Shown in pieces: positions 26,401 to 62,992 of a DNA stretch of 64,000 bases (position 1 is the stretch's first letter; each line of letters begins with the position of its first letter). Origin of the DNA: Patiria pectinifera (Eukaryota; Echinodermata; Asteroidea; Valvatida; Asterinidae); contig CM057149.1 in assembly GCA_029964075.1 (NCBI GenBank), forward strand, positions 18,304,197-18,368,196. Direction: 5' to 3'. Both the position numbers and the translations under genes were made by a program. The notes beneath the pieces are model-generated. The model saw nothing but the letters and a program-made list of their open reading frames with translations, ran no database searches and had not been told where the DNA came from.

Positions 26401-29400
26401 GATGTTCCGACACTCCTATGTTCCGACTACTCAACCTATGTTCCGACACCCCTATGTTCCGACACCCCTATGTACCGACTGCACATATTCCTATCCCTAT
26501 CCCTAACCCTAACCCTAACCCTCACCGGGAGTAACACAATCTAATGTGCAGGTTGTCGGAACATAGGGGTGTCGGAACATAAAGGTGTCGGCACATAGGG
26601 TTGTCGGAACATAAAGCAGCCACCATAATTTCACGCGATTAAGACCAACAAAATTGGTTCTGAATGAAGTTTTGGTCTTGAATTAAATTTGGTCCGCAAA
26701 GGAATTTGTTTTGTGGCTCAAAAACTTGGTGTTTTGTTTTTTTGTTTTTTGCACAATATTTTGATATTGTCTTTGAATCCAAAAATGGGTTTTTGGTAGT
26801 AAATATTGTTTTTAACTTTATGCCGCTTTGCCATTCTATACCTGAGCATTGCGTGATCATCGTGAGACAAAAATCTTTGCAAATTTCTGATTTTTCCCAG
26901 TGTTTAACATTTCCCTGGATAAGCATTATAATTATTCAGTTCTTTGGTACCGATGAAGCGGCAGTGTGATTGCGCGAACTTACCCCAGTTAAACTCAGAG
27001 ATGATTGTGTAGTCTGACAGGGATGCCTGAGTGTTTATTAGTTATTTACCCGACTGTATTTATTGTATTTGCAATGAAGCATCCGCACAAAACGCTACAT
27101 CCACCGGATATTGCAAAGTGCATGTCACACCATAAACCTTGCCCTGGTTATAAAGCGATTGAGATATGGGGCGGTTCACAAATACTGCCTATTCAAACAC
27201 GAATCTCGCCCGTCAGTTTAGATATCTGAAGAGACTTGAACTTGTGACAACCAAATTTTCTTCGAACTCCTAGCTCTTCCTTAAACAATTGCTGGTATGG
27301 TGGTTTATTTATATATTTTGCGTCGACAGCTTTATGAAATTAACCCATCATTATAATGAGATATCGCTAGCTGTATCCGGTTTTATATCGGTGGCAGCCC
27401 GATAGTCATGTATGCATTCGGACTATCGAAACTTCGGATTAAAGAACCTTCGGACTATCGGGCGCACCCATCCGACTTGAACCGGCCGATGAGCACAGGC
27501 GAATTCGGTAAAGACGTCAATCATGGGTTATAGTCTCAACCGAACGAGCTCGTCGGTGAATATTTATGCTCGGTTCGGCCTCTAACTTCAACTTTCCTGT
27601 GCGCACGGCAACAGTTTGGGAAGATGATTCGATTCTGTTTCTTTACACGCACTCAAAACAAATCCCCCAGCTCTGTCAAAAAAAAATTATCATACAAATT
27701 CCTCAAAAATAATGCCAAACACACCCCCCCCCTGCTGTGAGTGTGACACCCAAAAAAATTATACTGATATAATGTCCGCCTGTTCAAAATACGGTACACC
27801 ATTCTATAATCTACTGTTAATAATCGTCGAATTTAAACAGCGCCCCTATTGAAATATGGTACCACCACCCCCCCCCCAGTTTTTTGATTTTACGGCCAGT
27901 GCCCGGAAAAAAAAACTGTGTGTATTTCATTTTTTTTTTTTGAAACCCCCTGTCAAAATTCCTGGATCCGTCCCTCCCAGTTTATTTATTTGCTATAAAT
28001 AATATTGTTTAGTACAAAGTATAAAGCACTTGGAAAAGTTGGAATTAATACGCCATGTCGCGCTTTTAATGAAAAATTCCCTAGGGGAGTTCGTCAAACT
28101 TTTCCAGCGGTTAGTCAGTTAGGGTTGGTTTAGTTCATTCGCAAACTGAAGACCTGTCCTTGAACTACTAGAGAAGGTTGATTCTTTGCCAACAGCTTCC
28201 GAAATAGTCTAAATACCACCGTTTCAGAATGGTCATGTCAGATTTGCTTGGCGTGAGAACTATACCAAGCACTTGGGAAACGGAACTCCCGCTGTACTAA
28301 TTCCGGAATTCATGAGGAGATTTTGTAGGGTTTAAAATGCATGTGTATTTTCTGGGTAGGTATAGCACACGTGTGTGGTGGGGTTTATCTATGATGTAAA
28401 ATAGAGTTGCAATATGAAACGCTCGTCCTTAAATGTTTTACCCAATGGTGTCCAATATATTCATTGATACAAACGGCGTGTGTGTTGTGATTGTAGACAT
28501 TTTTTATTCATAAATGGCCGCAGAAAGACAGTTGTCACGTTTGTGTCGCCAGTGTTTTTTTTTTGGGGGGGGGTCTTCTTCCCTTAAAGTTGCATACCCC
28601 CTGCTCTTCAAAATGGATTTTAACTAACAAAGTTTCAATGTTTAAGTTTTGTTCTCACGAAAAAACTACTTTATTCCGATTTTGGGCGTCTGCAACCCTC
28701 TCAAAATAGGGCTTTCATTTTGCGCACAATAAACCCGCCCTACGAGAGCCGAAATTGTTGTTTTGCAGCCAATCATGAGTACGTTCGATTAATTCCCTGG
28801 TGCTAACTCGTGCAAGCGCGACAGCGTTCGATTTACCTCTCACGTGACTTCTCGCGCTTACTCGAGCCTGGCCCAAGTAACCGACTCGCCTAGCCGGTTA
28901 CTTGGGTAAGTATCCCATTAGGTAGCAGACCATTAAGTCGGTCCGAAAATGCCTACGCCGGCCAAATCACGATTTGCATGCCCTCAAAATCTTCAGTATT
29001 TGAGCATGCTGTGGGCCATGAACTTGAGGGTTTGTAACAAATATGGGTGGCAGCCGTGCACAGGACTGTGAGCTTGTAGTTCCGTTCAATTTGGATGAAA
29101 TTGGGGCCCTTAAAGCGCTCTATTTTGCAATGGAGTGTAGGCATCGTTTTTCAAAATGGCGATGGGCTAGCTTCAGGACTATTTTCAGGGGTGATCATCT
29201 TCGGATGGAAATTTCTCCCAAAGTCATCAGTTGACCCCCGAAAATTAAAAAGAAAATGAAAGATGATGAAATAAGCTGATGTGTGTCTCGAACACCTTGG
29301 AGAGTTGTGAGTATTTTTCCCGAATTTCTGAAGTGGGAGCATTTACCATTGGGGTCTATGGACGTTTATTTACTGGTCTGTAACCATAAGGCCATGCAAT

Positions 29401-31684
29401 AAACATGGCTGCCAACGTGACGTCCGGCGGGCGCCTCGGGCCATGCTCAGGCCGTGTCCGAAACAGGCTTCCAGAGCTACGGCTACGGGTCCATGGTCAG
29501 CGCGTCCCCGCGTATATACCTAGACCTAGCTCTAGACAGTTGATTCAGATGCAGGTGTGTCGTGTCAAAGTTCAACTTTCCAGCTCTTGCACGAAACTTT
29601 ACCCGAAACCGTTCATTTAGTTAGCTCCACTGCGCATGTCTGTCATCACGTGAGGAGCCAGGCGCGAGTTAGCTGGGGGAAGTAATCGAACGCACTCAAC
29701 TCGAGTTTTTGGGAAGAGGTTAGTCACTAACTGAACGTCGGTGGGTTTGTTTTCGTTAATGTCTCATTCAAAGGTGAGGTTTTTTTCGAGATGAAACGAA
29801 TTAGGCCTAAGCTTTTGTAGACAGGTCCGAAGACATAGCTGTACATCTACGGAGGCCCTCACCATGGCAAAAGCATTGTGCTTCTGTTGTGCTAGTGCAA
29901 ATAACTGCATGCCCCGTGACGAATTAATCTGAACAATAGCTGGCTCAGTGCCAAATGAGTGTGCACGTGACAATGTACAACATTCACCAACCACGAAATA
30001 AATTCATACATTTCAAGTAATGACACGAAGGAAAGCGGGAAAATTTTAATTCCTCCTTGCCTTCCACCCAGTACCTACCCACGTTCGACATAGTGACTTC
30101 AATTGTGAAAATCGCAAGCCTATCCGGGAAGCCTTGCTTGTGGTGAGGTTAAACGGAAGGCAACTTTCTTCCGTCACCGATGTTGAAAAATATAACCTTT
30201 TGACCGCTCGACGAAACATGTTGGTATGCAAACGAAAACATGTGGATTTGATTACATTCTCTATGCGCCAAACATACCATTTTTGATATCATGTTTGATA
30301 TCCAGTAATGGCAGGACGGAGTGGGGAGTGTAGCCTAGTGATTAGGGTTCTTGATTCTTGATCAGTGGGTCAGGGGTTCGAATCCAGCTGATGCACGGCC
30401 ATATCGGGGTAGTGTAGCCTAGTGGTTAGTGTTTGTGACTCATGATCAGAGGGTCAGGGGTTAGAATCCAGCTGCTGGTCATATGTTGTGTCCTTGGGCA
30501 AGCCACTTCATCCACACTTGCCTCTCTCCACCCAGGAATACAAACGGGTACCGGCATTAGCTGGGGAGTAACCTGCGATGGACTAGCATCCCATCTAGGG
30601 AGATTCTCAGTCGTTTCATGTTACTGAAACTGGAGATAAACGCCGGCCTGATGGGCCACATTGGCTCATGACAGACTTGACTTTACTTTACTTTACTTAC
30701 GGGACCCAGCTCTGTTGATCCGCCACAATATGAGTCTTTATATACATACATGTACAGGGTGCATAAAAAAAAGTAATCCAAAAATAATTGGCTAATAGCT
30801 TGTGAAAGAATAATATAGCTTGAATAAAGAATAGTAGATTTCCATTTATACATTATTTGCATCTCTGTTGTCTCAGAATGGCTGAGCATCAATAGGGCTC
30901 GAGTACCCGACCGCATAGGTCACCAGGAACCGGTTCCAGATTATGGGATCGGGTATACCCGTAATTAAGTTTACATATTTACTTAGTACCTTCTCAGACA
31001 AAGGAAAAGAAGGGTTTTGTGCACCGTTTGGGGGGAGTTTTCAAAATGAAATCCAGGCTGAGGCTACATGGATAATCAAAAAAGATTTCACGTTTATGTG
31101 CATTTTAAAGTTGCTAATCCTTTCACTCACATATTCACACTTGTATCTTGCTGCACTGGTGCACACATTTCAATCTGAACAACACTATTCCTGTGATTAA
31201 AAATTGGCGGGTTGGGTTTCTTTCACGGCACCCGTGTTTTACTTCAATAGGGTACCCGGTTCCTGTACTACCCAGAAATGCAAATCACCCCTTGCACCAA
31301 TAGGCCTAAACCAATTAAGTCGAATAGCATAATCTTTCACCACAAAATATACATGCAATCAAAGTACTTAAAAACTCCATTTTCTCTAGAATTTGTCACA
31401 AACTTCTTCTATAAATTTCTCCATAGTGTCTGAAACGAGCCCCTCGGCATCTTTCACCTGATTATAATTTATTGTATCCATTCCCAACCCAAAATGTTGC
31501 GCCAAAATGGTGCAACCCAAAATGTTCCGACCTCAATATTACTATTAACTATAACCCTCTGCGCTAAAATCATGCGTACTACAAGCTTACCTGCTGTAAC
31601 CAAGCGTCCTGAGGTGCTGAAAATAACAAGGAACACGAAGACAGATGGCAGCTTTCTCAAGAATGCTCCTCGTAAGAAGTCCAT
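11287..31684 (-). CDS. properdin-like/TSP1 gene B (signal peptide plus at least four TSP1 modules), incomplete
   Basis: Minus-strand exons at 31684-31591 (signal peptide), 26215-26078, 24217-24041, 23374-23195 and 11460-11287 all use phase-1 introns and splice in frame. The product would be a secreted string of TSP1 modules like its neighbours on the plus strand. I could not find a TB-like exon between the signal exon and the first TSP1 exon, nor a terminal exon left of 11287, so membership of the properdin-like group rests on module similarity, exon phase and location. The 11.7-kb intron between the last two exons contains the ISL2EU transposon; other introns hold MITEs, a tRNA-like unit and a minisatellite. 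The signal exon could belong to a different minus-strand gene. Confidence 0.6.
11628..11705. repeat. SINE-like tail fragment (TAATAA)n / TATAGCGC..GGCGCTTCACA
   Basis: An imperfect TAATAATA tract is followed by TTGTATAGCGCCAAA and the complementary GGCGCTTCACAGA. The same arrangement occurs at 62993-63060, marking a dispersed family. Confidence 0.5.
11710..13640. other. intronic sequence of gene B, nothing recognised
   Basis: It is AT-rich with homopolymer A and T tracts (12980-13080). A short repeated phrase, AATAATCTACAGTAAA and variants, recurs three times at 13445-13535. I see no gene here. Confidence 0.5.
13649..13770. mobile_element. small foldback element
   Basis: Arms of about 38 bp, CACGAAGGCCCCCTTCAATGG and its near-perfect inverse CCATTGAAGGGGGCCTCGTG, enclose a short loop (122 bp in all). 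Folded, it would form a hairpin. It looks like a tiny MITE. Confidence 0.55.
13988..14226. mobile_element. MITE with GGGCCCAATTT termini
   Basis: The ends GGGCCCAATTTCTTGGC and GGCCATAAAATTGGGCCC are inverted repeats bounding 239 bp. The interior repeats TTAGCAAG-type motifs in both orientations. The type is common in marine invertebrate genomes. Confidence 0.6.
14755..17706 (+). CDS. THAP domain-DDE transposase of ISL2EU element
   Basis: Three exons (14755-14962, 15477-15669, 16644-17706) splice with phases 1 and 2 into one open frame of 487 residues. Exon 1 is a THAP zinc-finger domain: C-C-C-C-N at residues 5-9, [11 protein letters not shown], the W of QAWICAVR, and ICSRHF at the end, giving the C2CH ligands. 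Exon 2 is a basic linker ([12 protein letters not shown]). Exon 3 has a coiled-coil-like stretch, a helix-turn-helix ([19 protein letters not shown]) and a DDE_Tnp_4 core, with the first Asp in IIDCFE, the second in ILADRGF and the Glu in [10 protein letters not shown]. It would bind element ends and cut DNA in the nucleus. No stop interrupts it, so it may be recently active or domesticated. An in-frame ATG at 14596 would add 53 residues; 14755 is preferred because the THAP fold starts there. The exon 3 acceptor may be 3 nt further (CAGCAG). Confidence 0.85.
17708..18129 (+). other. unassigned coding-like stretch after the transposase
   Basis: Directly after the transposase stop an open frame runs to 17959 ([18 protein letters not shown] at its start). 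In a frame shifted by one a second runs on to a TAA at 18127-18129 ([20 protein letters not shown]). Composition looks protein-coding, but I recognise no family. The minus strand is also open at 17877-17695. It could be a decayed third gene of the transposon or the far end of its second gene. Confidence 0.3.
18350..18640. repeat. scrambled duplicate fragments of both ISL2EU genes
   Basis: 18350-18440 matches 21005-21115 (AAAATGCATGC and AAGTGGCTGTTGATG shared), which is part of the YqaJ gene. 18549-18640 matches transposase positions 17470-17570 (CCATTC(T/C)TGCATTCAC shared). Both are in the same orientation as their sources, suggesting an internal rearrangement or remains of a second copy. 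Confidence 0.55.
18755..19123. mobile_element. PIF/Harbinger-like MITE, copy 1
   Basis: Termini of about 25 bp: GGCAAAAAAAAGTCTCCGG at the left and CCGGAGACTTTCATTTTTT then GGCC at the right. It is about 370 bp and closely related to copies at 48636 and 57955, all with an internal GTGCAGCAGCAG(G/A)ATTCCAG. It is nested inside the ISL2EU element. Confidence 0.8.
20196..22766 (-). pseudogene. SWIM zinc finger/YqaJ-like exonuclease gene of ISL2EU element (decayed)
   Basis: Reading from an ATG at 22766 on the minus strand, an N-terminal part ([27 protein letters not shown]) shifts frame near 22550. It then continues to AHCMCMAG, the start of a SWIM-type C-x-C...C-x-H finger, followed by a GTAAGA donor. 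A later exon near 21315-21200 gives [15 protein letters not shown], the CxH half. Further down, [17 protein letters not shown], then [26 protein letters not shown] and [13 protein letters not shown] with [14 protein letters not shown] are the YqaJ nuclease motifs (catalytic Asp, E-x-K and Gln). At least three frameshifts or stops are seen, at about 22550, 21200 and 20500. A MITE at 21999-22187 lies in its first intron. YqaJ-type nucleases act on DNA ends; the role in transposition is not known to me. Confidence 0.8.
21999..22187. mobile_element. MITE with GTTGCAAC termini, copy 1
   Basis: GTTGCAACCTGACGC at the left and the exact inverse GCGTCAGGTTGCAAC at the right bound 189 bp. The interior shares CTGGGACTGAGAAACA and CATAGACTTTGTACACA with the copy at 55177-55379. 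It is inserted in the YqaJ gene of the transposon. Confidence 0.85.
23195..23374 (-). CDS. exon: TSP1 module of gene B
   Basis: The acceptor (minus) is TTTTTTAAAG and the donor GCAG|GTGATT; 180 nt, phase 1-1. It encodes [37 protein letters not shown] and CDTNVTCLA. It is closely similar to the next module upstream (24217-24041), pointing to a recent module duplication. CSIFCS has lost the O-fucosylation Ser/Thr. Confidence 0.88.
23473..23858. mobile_element. MITE with GAGTGCGTTCGAT termini, copy A
   Basis: The ends GAGTGCGTTCGATCGCTTCCCC and GGGGGAAGTAATCGAACGTACTC are inverted. The interior, including AAACATGGCTGCCAACGTGA, is shared with 28777-29697. Confidence 0.65.
24041..24217 (-). CDS. 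exon: TSP1 module of gene B
   Basis: The acceptor (minus) is ATTCGCAG and the donor GAAG|GTATAC; 177 nt, phase 1-1. It encodes [38 protein letters not shown] and CDTNITCE. It shares [16 protein letters not shown] and GTSEDW with its neighbour at 23374-23195. Confidence 0.88.
24375..24462 (-). repeat. tRNA-like sequence with pol III terminator
   Basis: The minus strand reads TAGCTCGGTGGTCGAGTGG (A-box-like), CACTAGAAAG (Ser-AGA-like anticodon loop) and GGGTTCGAGTCCC (B box), then ends in T8. The acceptor and anticodon stems pair poorly, so this looks like a tRNA pseudogene or SINE head and not a working tRNA. Confidence 0.55.
25014..25529. mobile_element. MITE with AAAGCTATAGTCCATCATTTG-type ends, copy A
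   Basis: The left end CTATAGTCCATCATTTG and the inverted right end CAAATGATGGACTACAG bound about 515 bp. It is matched along its length by 41485-42007, and its 3' part by 37270-37354 (TTGCTTCAAACGAACAAAATG shared). Confidence 0.75.
25680..26040. repeat. diverged relative of the adjacent MITE
   Basis: It shares GGTACTAAACTCCCTGTGAAATTATT-type and CGAGCTGAAACTTCA phrases with 25014-25529 in the same order but lacks the intact ends. It is an older copy of that family next to the newer one. Confidence 0.5.
26078..26215 (-). CDS. exon: short TSP1-like module of gene B (first found)
   Basis: The acceptor (minus) is TATAACAG and the donor CCAG|GTGAGT; 138 nt, phase 1-1. It encodes [36 protein letters not shown] and RDCGP. 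It is shorter than the other modules (46 residues) and lacks the CSxTCG turn and one cysteine, so it is a divergent TSP1 module. Confidence 0.75.
26290..26620. repeat. 16-bp minisatellite in both orientations around a CCCTAA tract
   Basis: About nine units of ACACCCCTATGTTCCG and variants (26296-26480) lead to CCTATCCCTAACCCTAACCC. About four units of the inverse, GTCGGAACATAGGGGT, then follow (26551-26610). The array is flanked by GTG...CCAATAATTTC and CACCATAATTTCACG, possible short inverted ends. Confidence 0.8.
26640..28770. other. intronic/repeat-poor stretch, nothing recognised
   Basis: No exon with TB or TSP1 cysteine spacing was seen on the minus strand, where gene B would be expected to have one. 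At 27400-27470 GACTATCG occurs in both orientations. Homopolymer C and A runs lie at 27725-27955. Confidence 0.4.
28777..29697. mobile_element. MITE with GAGTACGTTCGAT termini, copy B, with nested insertion
   Basis: The ends match copy A (23473-23858). At the point where copy A reads TATCCCATAAGGCC, this copy is interrupted by 28921-29395, which itself has inverted ends GGTAGCAGACCA and TGGTCTGTAACC flanked by ATTA/ATAA. It is a second, younger MITE nested inside. Confidence 0.65.
30318..30699 (+). repeat. tRNA-derived SINE with duplicated head
   Basis: TAGCCTAGTGATTAG ... GGGTTCGAATCC (A and B boxes) is followed by a second head, TAGCCTAGTGGTTAG ... GGGTTAGAATCC. The body follows with TGTCCTTGGGCAAGCCACTT, and the tail is (ACTTT)n. 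The order is typical of tRNA-derived SINEs with a shared core. Confidence 0.75.
30890..31275. repeat. fragment related to the hAT-like element at 56594-58379
   Basis: It contains GAGTACCCGACC, CAGGAACCGG, GATTATGGGATCGGGTA and GGGTACCCGGTTCCTG. These phrases recur, partly inverted, at 57240-57300, 57905-57935 and 58340-58360. Confidence 0.4.
31591..31684 (-). CDS. exon: signal peptide, probable first coding exon of gene B
   Basis: The minus-strand ATG at 31684 opens [20 protein letters not shown] and continues hydrophobic to GRLVTAG, ending at a strong donor G|GTAAGC in phase 1, the phase used by every TSP1 exon here. The 94-nt length and layout match the signal exon of gene C (38997-39060). 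It is linked to gene B by orientation and phase only. Confidence 0.6.
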
Positions 31685-38996: not shown

Positions 38997-39060
38997 ATGA
39001 CTCGGTTTGTGGCCACCGTGGTGGCTTGCCTGATTGTGTGCGGCAAGTTGGCAGACACCG
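38997..39060 (+). CDS. exon 1 of gene C: signal peptide
   Basis: The ATG at 38997 opens [20 protein letters not shown], a classical short secretion signal, and ends in phase 1 at G|GTAAGT. The codon completed by the next exon begins the TB domain (DGYCF). No TATA box is evident upstream. Confidence 0.78.
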
Positions 39061-42000
39061 GTAAGTCGAAGTTGTATATTGTAACATCGTAAAAGCAAAA
39101 CACGAAGCAACATTTGTTTTTATAATTCGGTGGGCCTGAAGTTCAAAACTCCAGTTGGATAAAGATCACATTCTTTGGTCTACCCTCTTGTAGCAAACAG
39201 TGAAGAGTGAGGATCAATTTTGGTGTTTTTCCCCTTTAAATTCTATCAAGGGCACTCAAATGGTCACTTTATGCTTAGGTAGATTTCTGTTGAAAATCGG
39301 AGCCCTCACAAAAACGGAACTTTTCGTGCAGCTAGAATAACCAGGTTGTAGGATCGAATTATTGGACGCTTTACTTTAAGGAACAAGATAACTTGGTGCT
39401 TAAGGAAATGTTGCGTAAATCGTCAGCGTTTGGGTATTATTGCTGACATGCATTTACGGATTATCTGGTTTACGCCATTGTGGCCGACTTAGGCGTACTT
39501 ACGATTTTCACAGACAGTACCTTTAATACTCCACAGTGACCGCCTTAAGCCCGATTCATACTTCACGCGATAGCTAAAGCGAAGAGAAATTCGTGACGTC
39601 AACAATACATTCGAAGCACGTCCACCATTGTTGACGACAAGAATTTCGCTTCGCACATGCCTTTTGCATGAAGTATGAACCGGGCTTTACGATCCTGACT
39701 GGTTCTTTCAACCCAGTGTTTTGCTTTTTTTTTCGACTTCAATACGGCACGGTTAAGAGTTTGATGTTAAATTAATAGCCCACTTTTAGAGAATACAGTG
39801 AAAATGCATGTATGATTTTATCATGATGGAAAACGGCATACCAAGAAACACTAGACTGAAACTAATGGTGCATAATACAAAAGGGTGTGATTAAAAGATC
39901 CATAAAAAAAACATGTTTCTTTTGCATTGACCCTTTCATGCTCGACTTGGCACTATGCTAAAGGTAAATGGACCACGTGCCAAAACAATACGTATTTCCT
40001 AATTTATTCCTAAGCAAGGATCCTGCAAGGAAGTTCCTTGTTGGTTCAGCTGTTACATAGTGACGCGTAACACATCCGTTCACACGCTGGGTTTCAAACA
40101 AGATTTGGTGTTTTCATTCATTATCAATTTGTTTTACTAGAAGACCGTAGGTTTTCCTCATTGTTCATCTCTAGACAGTAACATTGTCAAAACGAAAATC
40201 TATTATATTAAAATGAGGTGCGAGCGAGGAATTTCGAGCACGGCACTCCGCATGAAGTGGGTGGAGCCTGGTTCGGTTTGTGCGCGTGCGCGGATTTAAT
40301 ATGCATATGAATGCAGTATAATGACGGCGAACGTGCAGTGGCCAATCAATAACACTGAGAATGAAAACGTCAGAACATAACTTGCATATGAGTCAACTTT
40401 ATCCTCAATTCTAAATTTCTTTGAAATTATTGAATTTCAGCTCCGCTTTTGTTCTAGAGGATTCCGTGCGCAGAGCGGATTACAAGTTCATTACACTTTG
40501 TTGACTCAAAGATTGAGAGAAAAAGAATAGGCCGATCAAGTAATAACCCCCCCCCCTCACGTGCTCATACGTCATCTTCCAGTCGGGCGCGTCATGCGCG
40601 CGTGAACGCATGTCCGACATAAATCACGGCTGTGAGGGTCAGATCACCCGGTGGGTCGGGGCTGAATGGATCGGCCCTATCTCGTCTCCAGGGTGTCGAG
40701 CAGTACGCGCCCACCACTACCTGCTCTCACCCTGGTATTGGATCATTTGCAAGTGCAAGATTTTTGAACACGTATGAAAATAAGAAATAGTCTGGTGCCT
40801 GCATGTGCGTTACATTAGCTTTTGTTTTTGTATGCGGTGTCTGGGGTAAAACAGCATCTATTCGTCGCACCGTGAGTTATAAAAATGCGTTTTTTGGGGA
40901 AGTGAAATGTTACAATCTGGTCCGCCAATATGCAGTATCACATTTCATATTAATATGAGCAAACTGGAAAGAACAGGAGTATAATTGAGAAGGCGTGGAC
41001 ATTATTATTACAATAATCGTAAAAACACGTAATGCACGTTGGAAATTACAACACCAACTACACGATAAAAATCCATTATTAGCAAGTTGTAATATCGAAT
41101 CAGGATACAGGAAAAAAGTTTCCTATCCAGGGCGTACTATTGGAAACGAGGTTTGAAATAAAGTAAGCACTGGGGACGAGGTGTAGATCGGCCAGCCTCG
41201 ACTCCACGGGCGCGTTCCTTACACTAACCCCTGGCCGTGATGTACACGTAAACGATGCTGACAATTCCAAGGGTTAAGATCGCGCGAGGCATGACGGGAA
41301 ACAACATGGCGCAGCAAGATCGTACCCATGGGGAACGAGGTTGGGGATCGGTCTATTATAGAGTACCGGAAGTGTTATCTCATCTTTGTTCCGTTTCACG
41401 CACTGGTTAGCGCGTAGGCGCGTGAACCGGAATACGTAGGAAAACTTCGGTGCTCTTGCAATTTTGTGTAGGCCCTATTCCTCCTTAAAGCCAGGGTCCA
41501 TCATTTGCAGCTATCCAAAAAGTAACTGGCGTAATTATTGTTGCAAAACATACTTGGTTGAAAGATAGTAAGGGGACTAAACTCCCTGTGAAATAAGTCT
41601 TTCTGGCAAGCTGTCATTTTGAAGAAATCAACGAAAGAAGGACAATTCCATTGGTGCGTAGTTCCGTTTTTTTTATTCGGCGAAGCGTGCGCAAGCGTTG
41701 ACACGACCGACACGCGCACGGTTGTTATTACTCGTCGGATCGGTGTGCGACATCGCGTAGCTGCAATCGGCTAGTGAGAACGTATCTTGGAAGCTGAATT
41801 CGGGCCCAATTCAAAACATGATTCAGCAACTTTTGACTTGAAATCGAGATCCTAGAATGTTGTTTTTCTCGAAATATACAGCTGAAGCTGAGTTGAAACT
41901 TCATCAGATTAGTTGTTCAGCACCGTTCTTTATAATTTAGACTTTGACAATTTTGTTGCTTCAAACGAACAAAATGCTCAAATTACAAATGATGGACTAT

Positions 42001-45000
42001 ACCTTTAAATTATACCTTTAAAGTTGTCAGGTCAAAGAAAATCTTTCACAATCGTTGGATATCGGGGGATTTTTTAACCGACGGTAGGTTGTTGTGTTTC
42101 CAAATAATAAGGATGTCCTCATGTTTAAGGAAATCCTGATCCGGGTCATTCCAGACAATACCCACATGTCATCCTCACAGACCCCACAGTCCTATTACAA
42201 AAATCGCACATGTTTCAACTACATGTACATGTACATGTATATCTAAATTTACTGTCTGATTGGTGCAGCATATCTGGTTCGTCTATAAACCAGATATTTG
42301 TCATATATTTGTCAAATATCATTGAGTTGATGCTGAAATATTTTGAGAAAATCAAAATCAGGTACCAAGTTTCAACTCTATTTCGCTGTTGAAATAAATC
42401 ACATTTCTAACAAACTTTAAGACATTATTCGTTAAATTGGCTGCTTTTTTGGGGGTGTTCGTTTTTAAAGATTTCAAAATCAGTTTGTGGGTCTAAAACT
42501 GTAAGGACAACTAACAATTAGATTTCACATTATTTAGAGTTATCTCTAATTTTCAGGTAGTGAAACTAGGGACTTGGACTGTTTAGAGTGAAAACAACCA
42601 TAAGTTTAAATTGAAATACTTTGAAAAGGAAACACTTCAGTCGATTCTTCATCATAAAAGAGATGGATAATAATAATAAATTCAATTCTCAACAGATCTA
42701 GCCGATGATTTATTTCGAGTGAAATAGATTAAGCAATGAATATTCCACCATATACTCTTCAATATATTTACAGCATATTTTCTGACGATAAACCATTTTT
42801 GTTTTTCAAAAATCTTCTCTGACATGGTTAGCACAAGACGGTTACTGTTTCCGGTATCGTGACCCGCTCGGCTCACGGGGGAAGTGCCAGCAACTGGTGG
42901 AGAGGTTACCAGGCCCCGACGGTGCCCCCGTGGACACGAGAGAGGCGTGCTGCCTGCTGGGCGCCGAGGGTTGGTCCATTAAGATCAGCGGGAAGAGGTG
43001 CGCTGCGGCGTGTGAAGTACCGGGGCCAGTGGAGGTGCAGGCACCGCAGGTCGTCCAGCAGGTTGCTGAATACGAAGAAGACCAGAATTCGGGTACGTGA
43101 TCCTTCCTTTTGCCTGTATTCCCTTATCCAGCATATTGTGCCGTTTCTTTTAGATCCACAAATGTTAACGAATTCACCCATGTTATCGCACGAAAAAAAA
43201 TCGGCCCATGACAAGTAATCAGTTATTAATTCCAACTTCTGAATTAAGAGCGGGACGCAATTCGTTCTGAATAAAATTCGCAATTTCTGAACTGGAGCTC
43301 ACCATTTAAAACCAATTTTTAAAACTGTGTAAAGGCCTACAAATACAAATAAGCAAATTTATTTGTAACATGATTTATATTCCTTTAAATTTCGTTCGGA
43401 AAGAAAATCGAAATTTTGAAAAAGCACGTATATACCAACTTTAACGCTTAAATAATGTACTGTCAATGCCTTCCAACAAATTCCATTTATTTGTTCTCCT
43501 CTACGTATATTCAATTTGTATGTTGAATTTAAACGACAAAACGTTCTACTTTGTTTCCTTTTGGACGTCTTTAACCCTCTGAATAAGCTTTTATTTTTGA
43601 GTTTCTTTTGCGCCTCTAAAGCGCAAATAATTGGAATTTTGTACAGTAATTATACGCCATAACTAAACAATGGTGGTAGAAACTTCTCTGAGCGTAATTA
43701 CAGATATGGCGGGACATACGAGGGCGCTATTTGGTTTGGGTAAATACCATAGACTAGGTTCTTTATGTCTATGGTAAATACAAAGACTTTACGCAGCTCA
43801 AACAGCGCCCTCAATTTTGTCTGCCATATCTCAAATAAGCCCTCTTTGAAAACTGTCATCAGATTTGACTTGAAACCAGTCTTGAAAGCACGATATATGT
43901 GGGCACAACTGATAACAGTTTCACATTGCTTTATTTTAGTTAAGAAGCATGACTGAGTGCAGTGGAAAGTCTATGGTGAACAGGTGAAACGGGTCGTGGT
44001 TTTCCGCAGTGACTATAGATTTCTAGAACCATGGAGGTTTCCAGAAATAGAATAGAACTTGAGATAGTTTCAGCCTCGTTGTTATATTTAGTGTGTTACT
44101 GAAATATTTTGAAATACTTTAAGGTAATTTATCTGGCAATTTTTTTGCGTCATAATGACGTCACGTTTTGTTTGCATGTGCGCTTTTAAACTGGAGCAAA
44201 GTGGGGACAAGAACCACCAAGCTCCCTGTAGAAAGCGTGATGTAATACAAAGCATGATATCTTTATGTTTAAGCGTTGTTCATGTCATTTTAATGGTTTT
44301 AACAGTTGAAGGCGTATGGGGAAGGTGGAGTGACTGGCAGCCATGTTCTGTCACGTGCGGTGCGGGATTTGAAGAGAGAAGGCGAGTTTGTAAACCCTCC
44401 CCCGATAATCCCGACGACAACTTTCAGTGTTCAGGGGACAGAGTTGAGCATCGAGACTGCAACGCCGGCATTATATGCCCCGGTAAAGAATTGGACCTGT
44501 TGCAGTGATTTTACAACTGAACGTTGTAGTACTGTATCTCTCATTGTTGATTAGCTTGCCCTCGTGTCTGTGACACATGCGCAGTTGCATGCAATAGAAG
44601 TTTAGGGATTCCAACTGCGCATGTGCGCCTCCAGTAAGGTCACTCAAATGTCTCAGAGACCCTTTTGATTAAACAAAAGACAACTGAGGTACAAGTTTCC
44701 CTTGTTATGTGTGGGTTGGTTATTCAGGACTTGGGACAATGGGGTGTGTGCGATTTCAATGGGCCCGAGGACCTGGGCACTGGCCCTGGAAAATTTCGAG
44801 TACAAACAAAAGGGAACAAAAGAAGGAAAGGATCAGGTTCTCATGAGTATAGTAAAACATGTGTTCAAGCATTACATTCACTTTGTGGACTTCCGAGCAA
44901 AGGATGTTTACATCAAACAGGTAGCAGCGACGTTGTGTGGACTTGCCCACGTCCACACAATGTTTCCCCCTCTCTGGAAAACAGGTTTAGAGGCATTTTC

Positions 45001-48000
45001 GGGTTAGGTTTACTTGTATTTGCGGCAAAATGAAGAGAAACACCAAAGGGATTCATAGAAAAACCTTTGGGCTGAAAGAATTTTCTCAGTGTGAGTAAAA
45101 ATGAGTTTTTTTCACAGGTTTTTTAACTACACGAAAACAAAAGAATGTCCACACTAGGTATGTAACGTGCATGCGTCTGTGGGTGTGTGTGTTATACACG
45201 AAATTGCGCCTAAAATGATTGTCCGAACCTTTTTACATGGGTGGTTTGCTGAGAGAGAATAAAAAAGACTGGTTTCCAGTGTCTTCATATTACGCTATAG
45301 ATATGGAAAGAAGGAACAGGATCCAGTCTTTTATTCTTCTTTATTATTAATTGTATGAGTATTTTCATTTTTGAATTATGCACAAGACAGTGTCTCATAT
45401 AGCAAGTTATCGCATTTTCGACGCTGAGGGCGCGGGGTATTTACGAGTCCACACCCATTCAGTTACGAAATCGTCACACGCACGGCTCAAAATGTTATCA
45501 CGGATAAAAAGTCACAACTCACATATTAAATTGTTGGCCTGAAAAGAAACTACGTGAGAATGTATGGGGGTCTACTTTTTACAATGTCGATTATGATAAA
45601 AGCGAGCATTTTTTTGACAGCCCCATTTTCCTTCCATTTCCAGTGCACGGTCAATGGGGCGAGTGGTCTCTGTGGAGTGAGTGTAGCGCCACCTGCGGTG
45701 ACACAATGGCCAGGTTTCGTGAGTGCGATTCGCCCAGCCCACAATTTGAGGGGAACCCGTGCGTCGGAGAGAGCAGAGAGGTGCAGTGGTGCAACGATAA
45801 GAGGCACTGCCCGAGTAAGTTTGGAAAACAACACATGAAGAAATTGTAAACCAGTCGGCCGTACGTTTTAACCCTAAAACTAGTAAGAGGACCGGGGAGG
45901 AATCCGCCACCCCCCCCCCTCCCCCTCCAAACTTATTCCACGATACCGTTACTTTTTTTAGCCTCGAGTCTTGCGCATCTTTTGATACCACAAGCATAAA
46001 TTTTCCAGTGAAAACTGAATTTCCCCAAATACGTAGTGTACACAAAGCAGAATTACCACTGGTGCATATGAATAATTAATTAGCCATAATTCCAAAACCC
46101 TTTGACGTATAGTCATGAAATGTCTTGGTATGTTTATATTAAGTTGTTTCATGCATGTACCGAGTTTTGTAATTTTTCGTCACTCGATGGCCAAGATCTG
46201 AAGGGGGCGGAATCCGCCCTCTCTCCCCCCCCCCCCCACCGGCTGTGAGATGGCCAAAATAACCCGGCCCTTTAACACGTATTAATTTTGCATGTGATCC
46301 TTCCCCTTCCCTTCCCCCACATCTCCCCCATCCCCCATTCAGACTTCTGGTTGCGAAGTGAGGGCGAGTGAAAGAACAAATCAATAAAATAATAAATACA
46401 TTTTTAAATAGACAACTTTTTGCCATGTTATTTACGTTGGATACTTATGTAAATTTTGGTTTGTTTTTGGTGCTACGAAACTGTGTTGACTGTTAGGTGT
46501 TTTAACATTAAGTTTGGCATTTTTTTCAAAGTCTATTGTAATTTGGTCTTCTGGTTTTTTTTAATGATGGCTGTTCTTTATTTGGCAAGAATCAGTTTGC
46601 GAAAATCAATCAAGCAAGTAAACAAAACACTACGACTCCGATGTAGCTGACGGTAGGTTTTGTATCATTGGTTTCCACATCTTTGCGTTCTCTTCTCTTT
46701 AGTCAACCATGCGAAATTCAACCAAGACAATAGTTCGTTTCTGTGGTACATCGTAAATGTGCTGGGTACATGTGTGAAGGTTAATTTTTGAAGGCGTTTT
46801 TTTTTCTTGCTCTTTCCCTTTTCTTTTTAAGTTCATGGCGGTTGGAGGGAATGGTTAGACTGGTCCCCGTGCTCGGTTACCTGTGGACGCGATGGGGAAC
46901 GCAGTCGCATCCGTAAGTGCACGGCGCCAAGGCCTCGGTACGGCGGCCGTGACTGCATCGGCGACCAGACGGACATCCGGTCTTGCAAGGCAAACGCCCT
47001 CAACTGCCCAGGTCAGACCAGTTGGACAAATTTAGGATTTCTAAAAAGTTTTCGATCTCCCCGTTCTATTTCTGAGTTTCGCCCCGAAAAAAAAATTAGA
47101 TTTTGATTTTAAATTCCCATCTTTGTAGCAATACAAAAGTTAATCACACATTTTTGGACTGTTTACTTTACAACTTTCGAACTATTTACTTTATAACTTT
47201 TGAATTATTTGCAGCCCGACGGATAATTGAGGGGTATCTTTTGTGCGTTGTGCACGCACAAGCAACCCAGAATACGTCTTTAAGAGCGTATTATCAGATG
47301 GTTGAAAATATCCAAACATATTTCCCATAAGAAACATACAAATTGAAAATTCGTTAGAAGGAAGAATCTTATAGGCTACAGTTGAAGAACACGGATAGAA
47401 CAACCTTCAAGGGCCATGCACCGTAATTTTTTTGAATGGAATCCTTGGAAATGCAACTTTCTATCCCATTTAATCCTATTTCCAAATTTCGTTTTGCCAT
47501 TTTTAATGGGGTTTTGGTGCCTTTTTTTGGGGGGGGGGGTTGATGCTAATATATATTTCCATATTCATGAGCAAAAGTGTGATGTCATTTCAGGCAGAAA
47601 CCTCAATGTTACTGCAATTTTAGCACCAAAATTTGCCAGAATTTGTATATTTCATTGTCGTAAATTTCCTTTTCTTAGGTGATTTGATTCGCTGTTGTTG
47701 TATCAGTACATTGCAGTAAGTCGATGAGCAACCTTTTATCACAAATATTTTCGGCAAGCATATTTTTGGTTTCGTTATTTGAACAGAAAACCCCTAAACT
47801 GAACAGTGTTTTCCTGAAATGTCATCCTCAGTGATCATGAAAAGCATGGAAATGTTTTAATGTGTAAACATATTTTGCGTACATTTAAAAGGAGTAGAAA
47901 AATGCACGAAATATGTTCCTCAGAAAAATTTAATGCACGGCCCTTTAAAATATCCGCAGAGCACTCGGTGTTTTGGGGATTTTTTTACATCCATGGTTTT

Positions 48001-51000
48001 AAGTCTTGATAACGTAAGTTTCCTTTTTGTACTCCGCTAAAAGTACCGTATTAACAACATTTTTTTTTTCGATTGCAATTTTCCTAGCAACATAAAAGTC
48101 ATTCACTGGGACATTGAACATCAATAGAAATCCACCGACGTATTGTCATTGAATAATTTCTTCGTAAAATGCGAATTATTGACTGCGAGACAATAACTCG
48201 GCTCTCGCAGGCCGACTATCTGTGCACGAAACGAAAGCCCTTGTTTTCAGAGGGTTGAAGAAACCCAAAATGGGGTTTTCGTTTAAATACAAAATTCGTT
48301 AGAGGAGAAAAATCCATATTTTCGTTTGAAGAGCATGGGATATACATCTTTAAATAAATTCGGCTATCAAAACGGAACCATTAGCTTCGTAAAGCAGTAG
48401 ATATGAATTTGAATTTTGCCCTTGCAGTTGATGGCGGAGTCAGCGAGTGGGGTCAGTGGCGATGTCCGCCGGAATGCATAGGTGGAGGTGGAGGGTTGGC
48501 GCTGCGGTCGCGCTCATGCACCAACCCCGTACCGCGGTACGGAGGGAGGCAATGCCGAGAACGACTCAACGATATAAGAAACTGCTCTGATGTCATCGTC
48601 ATCTGCCCAGGTAACCCATTTTTGTTGTTCCATTAGGCCAAAAAAGTCTCCGGTTTCTGGTATGGAGCTTGCCCAAAAAGTGGTGCGGCGACGCGGCTTT
48701 TTTTTTTTTTTTTTTACCTGATTGTTTTGCTTTAAAATTAATGTCGGCTGATGACTGCAAATGGTGCCCGACTAAACTTAGTGCAAATATAAGGGAGTCC
48801 AGAGAGGCCACATAAAGCTTATTCTCGACCATAACCCAATCTAAAAACACGTTAAAATTGTGCAGCAGCAGGATTCCAGTCAAACCAGTGAGTTTGGCGG
48901 TTTTGAGACATCATCTTTCATTGAAAAAAAACTTTTTCATTTTGCCGACGCGCATGGCTACGGCGACGCGCGCGCATACCAGAAACCGGAGCCTTTTTTT
49001 GTTGCCTTATTTGGTTTTCCACTCATTAAAGTACCAACTGTAATCAAACGTGCGTGTGTCAGGAGCTCCCTGCAAGGTCATTGGTCAAGATGGTATGACG
49101 TCATAGGGCCAGGAGAGCCAGCATCGAGCATTGTGCTCAGAGATTTTCAACAGCTTTTTTGAAAAGAGCGAAAATCTGGCTAGCAAATTTGTATCACCCG
49201 TGTGTCTTTCCTTCTGAAGAGAGACTGTCCTATACAAAATACGCATTGCAACAGTAGTTTAATGTTGTCGACTTATATACCCAACGTTAAATATTAACCG
49301 ATTTTCCCACGATCGACAACTTTTACCTGAGTTATTGCAACAGTGTTGTGGGTATGGACCCAACCTCGTCCCCAGTGCTTACTTTATTTCCACACACCAG
49401 TGGCGTCGCCAAGGGGGGGCCAGGGGGGGCACGCCCCCCGAAAAGAAACCTGCCCCCCCCCCCCCCCCATCTGAGATTTGGGTTGGTAAAAAAATATATA
49501 TATATTCACCTAAGTGCCCCCCCATCAAATGCTGGTGCCCACCCTGTGCCCCCCCAGACTGAAAAGTCTGGCGACGCCACTGCCACACACGTTTCCAATA
49601 GTAAACCCTGGATAGGAAACTTTCTTCCTGTATCCTGATTCGATACCTCAATTGGCTAGAAATGGATTTTATCGTGTACTTGGTGTTGTTATTCAAAACG
49701 TGCAGTACGTGTTTTCGCGATCATTCGTCCACGCCTTCTCGAAAATACTCATTTACTTTCCAATTTGTTCATATTAATATAAAATGTGATACTGCATGTT
49801 GTTTCGATAAAATCGTAACAGTTTAATTGAATACATCGTGTTTTCGTAACTCACGCCATGCTCGCGCTGCGACGAATTGACTCTGTTTTTACCCCAGACA
49901 CCGTATACAAAAACAAGCGCTAATGTAACGCACATGCAGGCACCATACTAGTCCTCATTTGCATACGTGTTCAAAAATCGTGCACATGCAAATGATCCAA
50001 TACCAGGGTGAGAGAGCAGGTAGTGGTGGGCACGTATTGCTCGACATTCTGGGGACGAGGTTGGGTATGGACCTTATTCATGAGAAAGCCATTTTGGTCG
50101 TGTTCCCTAAATGTATTGTATAAATTATCACCTGTTGAATGGGATAGTGCCAGACTATTTATGGATTGTAGCCTCACTTTAATTTTTTTTTTTTAATGTG
50201 GCTTAAAACTTTAGGGTGTGTTTAATCACCGATTTTAAATTATTCATCAATACAGACTGGTATTAATTTGTAATTAACTTTTTGCCATTACTTTCATTTC
50301 TATTTGCAAGATCCAAAAATGAAGATTTTACCTCGCTTTCAATTCAATATGGCCGATTCGTGAATAAAACCCACGGAATAATAATTTTCCCAACTTTTGT
50401 TGTTTTTTTTGCATTATGCAAGCAAAAAAAAAAATTCTTCATGATTTCATTTCACGGTATGTGCCGCCCGTGGTCGAATAAGAAATAATCTCTCTTTGTC
50501 GACCATTTTACAAGGGAAAAACTCGTTTTCTGTTCTTGATTTTCAGTTGACGGTATGTGGAACACGTGGTCACCCTGGAACGACTGCTCGTCGACCTGTG
50601 GGAAGGCCAGCTTCAAAACCCGCACGCGGCAGTGCGACAATCCGCCACCGCAGAACGGAGGGCTCAAATGCCAGGGGGAGAAATTCGAGAACAAAAACTG
50701 CAAAAAGGACCCCTGCCCGGACGATGGGGACTCATCCTGTAAGCAATTATTTGCTCAGTACCCAGTTACCCTGGAACTAAGGGTACTGGTTCAGGCTAAT
50801 TTTTGTAGCGTCTTGATAGGACGGTTGGCCCTTGCCAACTTTTGGGAGCGAGGAAACTGTTTGGTTTGTTTTTTAATTAAACAGCCTTATGCAAGAGGAT
50901 TTGTTTTCATGTGCGTAGTTTGAGCATCTTTTAGTTGAAGTTGTCACATTTTTAAAAAACTTTATCGACATTGATCAAACAAATTTGCAATCTGTGGTAT

Positions 51001-52606
51001 TTTGAATGGACAGACTGTATTCGGAATTTTTCTGGTATTATGCTAAATACTTTCACGGTGAGAAAACTTTCCAACCCATCTTTGTCCTTATAGCCCATTT
51101 TCGTCTTCTTTTATCCAAAATTATAACAAATGGGGGAACATCAAAACTGCGTACATATTACAGTTTTTGTTCCACGTTCCTGCTCGTATCAATTTGGACT
51201 CAATATTAAAAGAAAACTATCTTTTTACAGATCCCGGGCCAGCCGACTCATCCGTAGAGGTAAGAGATTAAGAAAACTTACAATATTTGATTATATAAAC
51301 ATTGTATATTATTATCCAGCACAACGTTTTTCAGGGGTAATAAATGGAACAAAAATACCAGAAAATCATAACGACAAATTAAAAACAACAATTTTACCTA
51401 AATCATTAAGAAATGACCCAAAGATTATGAAAAAAAGAACCAAGATATGGTATTGTTTGCAATGTAGCTAAAATATACTGAGTAAACAGCCGTTGACAAT
51501 ATTTTTCTTTAAGAAATGTACATATATGTATTATTTGGTGTGACTTACGGTGTTTCTTTTACACGGATTATGTGCCGTGATTTCGATAAAATGATGTAAT
51601 TTAGTTGCCTTTATATAATGTTGCTATAAATGAAAATACAGTGATATACCGACAACGGCCAATTCTAGCAAAGCTCTTATGACCTTATGACCCATCCCAA
51701 ATTCGGCGTGGGCCCTTTGTTATCTTAACAACTGTCACAAAAATAAGACGCTCCTTTCGTGCATGGATATCGTGTGTTCTTATGTGGAAGGACAGACTCA
51801 AGATTGAATGCGTCATTAGATTTTGATAATTAAAATATCCAATCGTTTCTTGTCAGCATTTCAGAAGTCCAGCCTGTAAAATGGCTTACTTTTTAGTAAT
51901 GTGCCTCTCACTCCACGCTGCAATACTTTTTTGTGTTCTGCAACCAACTATAGTCACCGACCGTAATGCACATACGTCAGTTGGTAACATAATGGTTCTC
52001 GGACTTTATACTCTCCTCTAAAACAAAAATCCCTAGTACCATAAATCGGAAAAAGCCAAAATTTATCTTTGATACTTAAGCCTTGATTAAACTCAATTTT
52101 AGAGAGAAAAATCTTTTTTGAGGGGGAAAAAACAAATGATTATATCAAGCTTTGAACCAATGACGTCCAGTATATGTATACATATCCAAATCCTTAACCA
52201 TGTCATCAAGTTTTCTCAAATTGCATGATTACATCATACACATCACTTGATATCGTACACATGGCTTTACTTGGTTGTAGATGAAAAATGTCCCTCCATG
52301 CTGACTGCGGGGCTTGCCCCTTACTACACAGCATTTCTTTGAATAGTGCTTAAAACTTCTTCATCTTTTCAATGAAAGAGGGTAAAAATCGTTGTCCATG
52401 CAGTGAAAAAAAACATGGAATAAAATGTCATTTCCCGCGTTTTTTTGCCGCATTTGCAGGGAGGGTCCACTCCGCCATGTGACGATGAAGATTACCCGTC
52501 TTCGACGGGAGAGGGCGGTAGTGGCTGCCGGGATCCTACCGACGGTAGCGGTAATGACGTCGACAACGGCGAAATATCCGTCGAGAGTTTGGATTACTAT
52601 GAATGA
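38997..52606 (+). CDS. properdin-like protein gene C, complete
   Basis: Nine exons (38997-39060, 42838-43092, 44306-44482, 45644-45814, 46832-47011, 48428-48610, 50547-50738, 51231-51259, 52460-52606) join without a break into 1398 nt, 465 residues. Order: signal peptide (1-21), TB-like six-cysteine domain (about 24-80) with an acidic linker, TSP1 modules at about 107-165, 166-222, 223-282, 283-343 and 344-407, and an acidic Gly/Ser-rich tail (408-465). Human properdin is 469 residues with the same order, a TB-like domain then six TSP1 modules and an acidic end. Properdin oligomerises and stabilises the alternative-pathway C3 convertase; that role here is inferred. W-x-x-W motifs suggest C-mannosylation, and CSVTCG or CSxTCG in modules 1, 2, 3 and 5 suggests O-fucosylation. 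All TSP1 introns are phase 1. Introns host at least six transposon copies. Exon limits are set by eye. Confidence 0.82.
39546..39688. mobile_element. short MITE with AAGCCCGATTCATACTTC ends
   Basis: AAGCCCGATTCATACTTC and the inverted GAAGTATGAACCGGGCTT bound about 143 bp in intron 1 of gene C. Internal GCGAAG/CTTCGC motifs also pair. Confidence 0.65.
40679..41185. mobile_element. MITE with 10-bp target duplication, copy 2 (inverted)
   Basis: It is the reverse-orientation homologue of 37477-38156. It is flanked by GATCGGCCCT and GATCGGCCAG, 8 of 10 matching, so it is probably an older insertion. It lies in intron 1 of gene C. Confidence 0.75.
41485..42007. mobile_element. MITE with CCATCATTTG ends, copy B
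   Basis: The left end TTAAAGCCAGGGTCCATCA and the right end AATGATGGACTATACCTTTAA bound about 520 bp, matching 25014-25529 in order and length. It lies in intron 1 of gene C. Confidence 0.75.
42838..43092 (+). CDS. exon 2 of gene C: TB-like domain
   Basis: Acceptor AGCACAAG, donor G|GTACGT, 255 nt, phase 1-1. It carries [31 protein letters not shown] and GKRCAAAC: the six cysteines, GKC and CC of properdin's TB-like domain. About 18 of the framework positions match gene A's exon at 3946 (CFR-R-P-G-RGKC, CC-LG--GWS-K--GKRC--AC). A hydrophilic linker with EYEEDQ ends the exon. Confidence 0.85.
43100..44300. other. intron 2 of gene C, no recognised repeat
   Basis: AT-rich sequence. A near-palindrome around 43745-43775 repeats TAAATACCATAGAC / GTCTATGGTAAATAC. 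No exon was seen. Confidence 0.4.
44306..44482 (+). CDS. exon 3 of gene C: TSP1 module 1
   Basis: Acceptor TTTTAACAG, donor CCCG|GTAAAG, 177 nt, phase 1-1. It encodes [34 protein letters not shown] and [11 protein letters not shown]. Intact CSVTCG and W-x-x-W. Confidence 0.9.
45644..45814 (+). CDS. exon 4 of gene C: TSP1 module 2
   Basis: Acceptor CCATTTCCAG, donor CCGA|GTAAGT, 171 nt, phase 1-1. It encodes [37 protein letters not shown] and [10 protein letters not shown]. Confidence 0.9.
46832..47011 (+). CDS. exon 5 of gene C: TSP1 module 3
   Basis: Acceptor TTCTTTTTAAG, donor CCAG|GTCAGA, 180 nt, phase 1-1. It encodes [37 protein letters not shown] and [11 protein letters not shown]. It is too short, with its flanks, to show as a long open frame, and is recognised from the module pattern. 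Confidence 0.88.
47409..47946. mobile_element. MITE, AAGGGCC-ended family, copy 2
   Basis: AAGGGCCATGCA and the inverted TGCACGGCCCTT bound about 538 bp in intron 5 of gene C. It is homologous in inverse orientation to 7989-8597. Confidence 0.65.
48428..48610 (+). CDS. exon 6 of gene C: TSP1 module 4 (variant)
   Basis: Acceptor CCCTTGCAG, donor CCAG|GTAACC, 183 nt, phase 1-1. It encodes [38 protein letters not shown] and VICP. The first tryptophan and the CSxTCG turn are replaced (GGVSEW, CPPECIG), so this module probably lacks O-fucosylation. Confidence 0.88.
48636..49006. mobile_element. PIF/Harbinger-like MITE, copy 2
   Basis: It begins GGCCAAAAAAGTCTCCGG and ends CCGGAGCCTTTTTTTGTTGCC, flanked by TTA on both sides. 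It lies only 25 bp after the splice donor of exon 6 of gene C. Confidence 0.82.
49361..50063. mobile_element. MITE with 10-bp target duplication, copy 3
   Basis: CAACCTCGTCCCCAG ... CTGGGGACGAGGTTG, flanked by identical GGTATGGACC at 49351-49360 and 50064-50073. It contains the nested hAT element at 49398-49582. Intron 6 of gene C. Confidence 0.88.
49398..49582. mobile_element. nested non-autonomous hAT element
   Basis: CAGTGGCGTCGCCAAGG and the inverted CTGGCGACGCCACTG bound 185 bp, flanked by CCACACAC on both sides (49390-49397, 49583-49590). The 8-bp duplication and CAGTGGCG terminus fit hAT. Confidence 0.88.
50074..50370. repeat. intron 6 segment homologous to 6880-7215 of gene A
   Basis: It is the partner of the segment downstream of gene A. 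The homology appears to continue to the left of the MITE (GTGGG(T/C)AT), so the MITE inserted into an already shared sequence. Confidence 0.55.
50547..50738 (+). CDS. exon 7 of gene C: TSP1 module 5
   Basis: Acceptor TTGATTTTCAG, donor TCCT|GTAAGC, 192 nt, phase 1-1. It encodes [37 protein letters not shown] and NCKKDPCP, followed by an acidic DDGDSS start of the tail. Confidence 0.9.
51231..51259 (+). CDS. exon 8 of gene C: 29-nt linker exon
   Basis: Acceptor CTTTTTACAG and donor GAG|GTAAGA, encoding [10 protein letters not shown] and shifting from phase 1 to phase 0, the phase required by exon 9. It is small, but both splice sites are strong. Confidence 0.65.
52460..52606 (+). CDS. exon 9 of gene C: acidic C-terminal tail and stop
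   Basis: Acceptor GCATTTGCAG. The frame gives [20 protein letters not shown], then [20 protein letters not shown] and TGA. It is strongly acidic, comparable in charge to the short acidic end of human properdin. Two cysteines may pair with each other. Confidence 0.7.
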   Translation, partial: GGSTPPCDDEDYPSSTGEGGSGCRDPTDGSGNDVDNGEISVESLDYYE

Positions 52607-54792: not shown

Positions 54793-62788
<7,996 letters not shown>

Positions 62789-62992
62789 GTAAGTATTCAC
62801 TCATTCCATCTTACTTACTAATAAGGTTTCTCAAAGTCTAATGGACTCCGTTCGTGAACAAGAGAGGGCGTATTTCTTACCATCTTTGACAGCTCAATGG
62901 ACGGGACACACCGCGTGCCCATACTGGTTTGCGTGCGTAAAGTGCAGAGTGCACGACTAATTGTGCACTGTAAGCAATAGCTTCTTTGCTTT

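What the first reader, a model, noticed from the sequence alone, without database searches (positions are those of the whole stretch)
38997..52606. Complete properdin-like gene in an invertebrate deuterostome
Nine exons splice without a frame break into 465 residues: signal peptide, six-cysteine TB-like domain, five TSP1 modules, acidic tail. The TB-then-TSP1 order and overall length match vertebrate properdin (469 residues, six TSP1 modules). If correct, alternative-pathway stabilisation may have a counterpart outside vertebrates, with one module fewer.
Basis: partly seen in the sequence, partly recalled or inferred. Interest (0 to 1): 0.85.

Follow-up and report, generated by a model that had tools for sequence, protein, structure and literature searches.

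The report
Properdin-shaped secreted TSP1 gene pair
The predicted gene is really there and has the outline of the immune protein properdin, but it lacks the loops properdin uses to grip complement enzymes and its parts are no closer to properdin than to other proteins, so it is best read as one of a pair of secreted adhesive proteins that may or may not share an ancestor with properdin.

Summary
Observation: holds. The nine-exon, 465-residue model at 38997-52606 is reproduced exactly, with a 29-base micro-exon: signal peptide, six-cysteine TB-like domain, five TSP1 modules, acidic tail. It remains a predicted model; no RNA was available. New here: a second TB + TSP1 gene (B, three TSP1) at the left edge of the window, and between them on the minus strand gene C (five TSP1, no TB found). 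A and B were the only such TB exons found in the assembly.

Interpretation: the outline is properdin-like, but the step to a properdin counterpart is not supported. Properdin's TB profile (PF18487) picks up neither TB. Human properdin's TB is more similar to two follistatin-N-like and two fibrillin-type TBs of this genome than to A or B. None of A's five modules has the TSR5 loop, the TSR6 insert or the extra cysteines of human properdin. All five are closer to thrombospondin-1 repeats than to properdin repeats, though that comparison is weakly diagnostic. Structure prediction could not decide the TB fold. Distant common origin is not excluded; convertase stabilisation by the known contacts is unlikely.

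The parts
38997..39060 (+). Gene A exon 1: start codon and signal peptide, [21 protein letters not shown]
   Evidence: consensus donor CCG|gtaagt, phase 1; gene B has an equivalent signal exon and a first intron of similar length
42838..43092 (+). Gene A exon 2: six-cysteine TB-like domain plus 26-residue linker; alternative start 42832
44306..44482 (+). Gene A TSP1 module 1
45644..45814 (+). Gene A TSP1 module 2
46832..47011 (+). Gene A TSP1 module 3
48428..48610 (+). Gene A TSP1 module 4, divergent: CPPEC in place of CxxS/TC and a glycine run
50547..50738 (+). Gene A TSP1 module 5, ordinary spacing without insert
51231..51259 (+). Gene A micro-exon (29 nt), [10 protein letters not shown]
   Evidence: best of 3 candidates by splice score, restores frame of the tail; predicted only
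52460..52606 (+). Gene A last exon: acidic tail and stop
   Evidence: predicted only
3946..4236 (+). Gene B TB-like exon (its signal exon lies about 120-212 bases left of the window, in L015)
4676..4834 (+). Gene B TSP1 module 1
5478..5663 (+). Gene B TSP1 module 2
6394..6563 (+). Gene B TSP1 module 3 and stop
10378..31684 (-). Gene C: five TSP1 exons (open frames 26070-26249, 24033-24305, 22989-23720, 11252-11491, 10378-10560) and a candidate signal exon 31591-31684; no TB-like exon found
   Evidence: exon joins of gene C were not worked out in full

Best explanation
Gene A encodes a secreted rod-like glycoprotein: a short TB domain, an acidic linker, five TSP1 modules and an acidic tail. It is one of two tandem TB + TSP1 genes in a three-gene TSP1 cluster. 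Most likely it works as an extracellular adhesive or bridging protein: the TSP1 rod, with sites for C-mannose and O-fucose in most modules, carries ligand binding, and the TB domain and acidic tail make further protein contacts, possibly self-association. It resembles properdin in outline but does not carry properdin's known C3b-gripping parts. Shown: the predicted exon chain, domain order, module anatomy and paralogy. Inferred: secretion, glycosylation, ligand binding, oligomers. Whether the TB + TSP1 order was inherited from an ancestor shared with properdin or arose separately is left open.
For: Exon chain and domain order. Paralog B with signal, TB, three TSP1 and stop. CxxS/TC motif in 4 of 5 A modules, WxxW-type motifs in all 5 but only one in module 4. 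Properdin loops and extra cysteines absent in 5 of 5 A modules. TB domain of A and B scores above cysteine-fixed shuffles against several TB domains of the same genome, e.g. L034 z 4.2 and 5.1. A's modules score higher with human thrombospondin-1 than with human properdin in 5 of 5 cases.
Against: No expression, binding or localisation data. The best whole-protein PDB match is properdin, and A's TB ranks human properdin second among 16 TB domains compared. Thrombospondin-1 repeats are also the nearest match of two human properdin repeats (TSR2 and TSR4), so nearness to thrombospondin-1 says little. The TB fold itself was not confirmed.
Confidence: 0.6

Rival explanations
1. Divergent properdin kin: A and B descend from the same TB + TSP1 ancestor as vertebrate properdin, which later gained a sixth module and the TSR5/TSR6 loops.
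For: Same order signal-TB-TSP1-acidic end; same six-cysteine short TB pattern (for the definition); A's TB beats all but 13 of 2000 cysteine-fixed shuffles against human properdin's TB; among the TB hits and TSP1 hits listed for this genome, TB next to TSP1 occurs only here (lists are lower bounds); in the limited set the nearest module to human TSR5 is A module 3.
Against: PF18487 detects 8 places in the genome at E up to 10, neither A nor B among them. B's TB is weak against human properdin (70 of 2000 shuffles reach it; about twelfth of 16). Human properdin's TB is closer to L042, L043, L039 and L029 than to A. A profile of A and B ranks human properdin tenth of 16. Module tree unresolved, 1 well-supported branch of 27.
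Confidence: 0.3
2. Functional invertebrate properdin: the protein binds C3b/C3bBb and stabilises the convertase.
For: Architecture; the genome has thioester-domain genes of the C3/A2M superfamily (30 exon matches). A 'Properdin (CFP; contig_312)' was named by similarity in a sea star transcriptome, with at least one contig of each complement component higher in treated animals (PMC4503460, passages).
Against: The contacts that grip C3b in human properdin, the TSR5 loop (residues 328-336) and TSR6 insert (passages of PMC6713926 and PMC6736995), have no counterpart in the 5 A modules; cleavage of that TSR5 loop abolishes C3b binding in the human protein (passage). C3 itself was not identified here: the anaphylatoxin search found nothing but also nothing in its controls.
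Confidence: 0.08
3. The model is a piece or a mis-join: real transcripts extend to other domains, or the tail and micro-exon are wrong.
For: Weak acceptors at the TB exon and tail; introns of 1.5-3.8 kb could hide exons.
Against: Gene B shows the same start (signal exon, about 4-kb first intron, TB exon) and ends in a stop after its last module; no further cysteine-rich exon with good splice sites was seen in the scans of the region and no TSP1 in the 10 kb to the right.
Confidence: 0.1

Closest known systems
Vertebrate properdin (CFP)
   Different: Five modules (A) or three (B) instead of six; 26-residue linker after TB in A where human properdin has almost none; no TSR5 loop, no 31-residue TSR6 insert, no extra cysteines in modules 1-2; TB not detected by PF18487; PF22195 matched only over profile positions 2-38 of 90 (best stretch) against 2-90 in human
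Thrombospondin-1/2 TSP1 repeats
   Same: Closest single repeats for 5 of 5 A modules when set against properdin
   Different: No other Pfam family than TSP1-type ones reported for A at E up to 1; thrombospondin's other domains are not seen
Fibrillin-type TB and follistatin N-domain
   Same: TB superfamily cysteine pattern; A and B score above cysteine-fixed shuffles against several of them
   Different: Those occur in other gene contexts here (C1:14.07-14.13 Mb, C14:47.15-47.17 Mb, C655; C1:26.73 Mb); names of these loci are inferred, not tested
'Properdin' contigs reported in echinoderms
   Same: A sea star contig was named properdin by similarity (PMC4503460, passages)
   Different: That naming reports no domain order; whether it is the same gene cannot be told here

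Membership tests
Properdin (CFP) | Signal peptide followed by a six-cysteine short TB cysteine pattern | tested here: met
   Sequence itself; definition in PMC6736995 section 13. Pattern also occurs in some other TB domains of this genome.
Properdin (CFP) | N-terminal domain recognised by PF18487 | tested here: not met
   No match for A's TB at E up to 1 or 10 or for B's at 10, HMMER filters on; not among 8 genome places at E up to 10. Human TB scores 4.7e-25.
Properdin (CFP) | TB fold of the N-terminal domain | tested here: inconclusive
   pLDDT 57.8 (one sequence) and 69.0 (two sequences); Foldseek against PDB gave 9 and 4 matches at E up to 10, none a TB protein. One helix carrying the CC pair and three strands is compatible.
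Properdin (CFP) | Six TSP1 modules | tested here: not met
   Five in A, three in B
Properdin (CFP) | TSR5 loop: nine residues between first and second cysteine | tested here: not met
   Spacing 3 in 5 of 5 A modules, 9 in human TSR5
Properdin (CFP) | TSR6 insert: 31 residues between third and fourth cysteine | tested here: not met
   11-12 in 5 of 5 A modules, 31 in human TSR6
Properdin (CFP) | Extra cysteines for the TSR1-TSR2 disulfide | tested here: not met
   Six cysteines in each A module, seven in human TSR1 and TSR2
Properdin (CFP) | Reciprocal best match with human properdin | tested here: not met
   Forward: properdin is top PDB match. Reverse: gene A's best exon is 17th of 100 rows; gene C has rows 2, 4 and 9 (95 of 166 candidates scored).
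Properdin (CFP) | Binds C3b and stabilises C3bBb | not testable with these tools
   Needs protein
Thrombospondin family | Thrombospondin N-domain, vWC, EGF, calcium-binding and C-terminal domains beside TSP1 | tested here: not met
   Pfam at E up to 1 reports only TSP1-type families for A; domain list from PMC10381214 section 24
ADAMTS / ADAMTS-like | Metalloprotease, or spacer and cysteine-rich domains | tested here: not met
   Only TSP1-type Pfam families in A; transcripts not available

The most novel reading that the evidence does not exclude
A and B preserve the pre-complement form of properdin: a secreted TB + TSP1 bridging protein that existed before vertebrates, to which the convertase-gripping loops and sixth module were added later. 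Properdin would then be a recruited matrix or pattern-binding protein rather than an invention of the vertebrate alternative pathway.
Probability: 0.25. Interest if true: 0.75.

Novelty: new variant of a known kind. Interest (0 to 1): 0.4.

Why it matters
The origin of properdin, described in the held literature as the only positive regulator of complement (for instance the abstract of PMC8760278, seen in a listing), is not settled by the papers searched here. A TB + TSP1 gene without the C3b-gripping loops gives a concrete candidate outgroup and shows that architecture and BLAST rank alone are not enough to call an invertebrate protein properdin, a naming that is in print for a sea star contig (PMC4503460).

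Tried and rejected
Single-domain PDB searches with the TB region found nothing and a profile-profile comparison with human properdin's N-terminus gave 1.3% probability, E 0.04. Synteny: human CFP lies beside SYN1/TIMP1 (recalled); synapsin exons lie on unplaced contigs C619 and C620, so the test was uninformative. Complement context: thioester-domain matches exist, NTR gave two matches not near them, anaphylatoxin gave none and nothing rang in the controls either; C3 versus A2M was not resolved. Mitochondrial code to fix the phylum: no COX1 match. A third weak TB candidate on C4 (E 3.2) showed no TB pattern when translated; one on C15 (E 5.6) was not examined. Tree of 30 TSP1 modules: unresolved. 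The comparison used 22 named modules plus 8 of the 11 other genome loci tried (3 gave no module by the pattern). In one search, 13 of the 15 PF00683 hits were used (two below the cut-off dropped) plus two weak PF18487 hits that look like follistatin N-domains; domains were trimmed by hand.

Full report
The observation. The window is 18304197-18368196 of contig C21 of an unnamed 613.5-Mb assembly. My first model had eight exons; the ninth is a 29-base micro-exon at 51231-51259 with a strong donor, the best of three candidates that restore the frame of the tail. All junctions but the last are phase 1. Pfam finds five TSP_1 stretches (E = 2.1e-44). TB exon acceptor and tail are the weak spots, and no transcripts were available.

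The surroundings. A second TB-like exon lies at 3946-4236, 44-50% identical to the first. With a signal exon just left of the window and three TSP1 exons it forms gene B, 298 residues ending in a stop. Between B and A, on the minus strand, lie five TSP1 exons and a candidate signal exon (gene C); three kinds of scan found no TB exon there. C's fourth module and A's third are each other's best match in the set compared, and B's first groups with C's second and third (support 87/85), so the cluster probably grew by local duplication. Genome-wide, searches with each TB found only A, B and one chance-level match apiece (E 3.2 and 5.6). The TSP1 and TB lists are lower bounds (150 of 297 candidates scored).

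Is the N-terminal domain properdin's? The cysteine pattern C, C, CC, C, C is that of the 'short TB' of properdin (PMC6736995 section 13). Sequence evidence beyond that is mixed. For: against human properdin's TB, A scores above all but 13 of 2000 shuffles that keep its cysteines in place, B above all but 70; for A alone human properdin ranks second by z among 16 TB domains. Against: Pfam's model of this domain, PF18487, which gives the human sequence 4.7e-25, reports neither A nor B and in a whole-genome search lists 8 places at E up to 10 without them, the best being a TB on C1 in a run of TB domains (28.7 bits). Human properdin's TB is closer to L042, L043 (follistatin-N-like), L039 and L029 (C1 TB run) than to A, which is fifth of 17, with B twelfth. 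A profile of A and B ranks human properdin tenth of 16. This agrees with the published structural neighbours of properdin's TB, follistatin and fibrillin domains. So A and B carry a TB-superfamily domain with no special tie to properdin's.

Are the TSP1 modules properdin's? Forward, the best PDB match of the whole protein is human properdin (2e-45, 158.6 bits over three stretches), but one stretch of thrombospondin-1 alone gives 129.7 bits. Module by module, 5 of 5 A modules score higher with human thrombospondin-1 than with any human properdin repeat; for B it is 2 of 3, for C 3 of 5 with one tie. This is weak evidence, since human properdin TSR2 and TSR4 themselves are nearest to thrombospondin-1, and the nearest module to human TSR5 in that set is A's third. 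In reverse, human properdin's best match in the genome is on C3, gene C takes rows 2, 4 and 9, and gene A's best exon is row 17 of 100. The tree of 30 modules is unresolved.

Can it work like properdin? In the human protein the concave face of TSR5 with its loop at 328-336 and an insert in TSR6 grip the C-terminal helix of C3b; TB binds TSR4 and TSR1 binds TSR6 of the neighbour to form oligomers; TSR1 and TSR2 share a disulfide (passages of PMC6713926, PMC10087229 and PMC6736995). In A the spacing between cysteines 1 and 2 is 3 in all five modules (human TSR5: 9), between 3 and 4 it is 11-12 (human TSR6: 31), and each module has six cysteines (human TSR1 and TSR2: seven). A's fourth module is odd in its own way (CPPEC and a glycine run). 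Without loop and insert, the known way of stabilising the convertase is not available; another way cannot be excluded.

What it most likely does. A secreted, probably C-mannosylated and O-fucosylated TSP1 rod (CxxS/TC in 4 of 5 modules) with a TB domain at one end and an acidic tail at the other suggests an extracellular bridging or adhesive protein, in matrix or body fluid. Self-association through TB is possible by analogy and untested.

What is known. Searches of the held library for properdin with invertebrate, sea urchin, amphioxus, lamprey/evolution, jawed vertebrate, 'properdin-like' with several invertebrate groups, and TB domain with TSP1 showed no paper in their listings describing a TB + TSP1 gene in an invertebrate, though only listings and passages of eight papers were seen. 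A sea star study names a contig properdin by similarity (PMC4503460 passages).

Verdict. Real gene model, properdin-like outline, tandem pair, not a demonstrable properdin. New variant of a known kind; the open and testable question is whether it shares properdin's ancestry.

Noticed in passing
3946-6563 (+) and L015 end: Tandem paralog gene B: signal, TB, three TSP1, stop; signal exon just left of the window.
   Followed up: yes
10378-31684 (-): Gene C: five TSP1 exons and candidate signal exon in opposite orientation between B and A; it matches human properdin better than gene A does.
   Followed up: partly
14581-14967 and 16633-17703 (+): THAP domain exon and a long open DDE_Tnp_4 transposase frame (E 5.3e-49) inside gene C's long intron.
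   Followed up: partly
62598-62789 (+): Exon resembling part of a protein kinase domain (Pkinase 22.6 bits, below cut-off) at the right edge.
   Followed up: no
48428-48610 (+): Module 4 of gene A has lost the O-fucose site (CPPEC), two of its tryptophans and has a run of five glycines.
   Followed up: partly
L039 (G000:C1:14080697-14081061): A TB domain in the C1 run passes the cut-off of the properdin TB profile PF18487 (28.7 against 25 bits), so that profile is not specific to properdin.
   Followed up: partly
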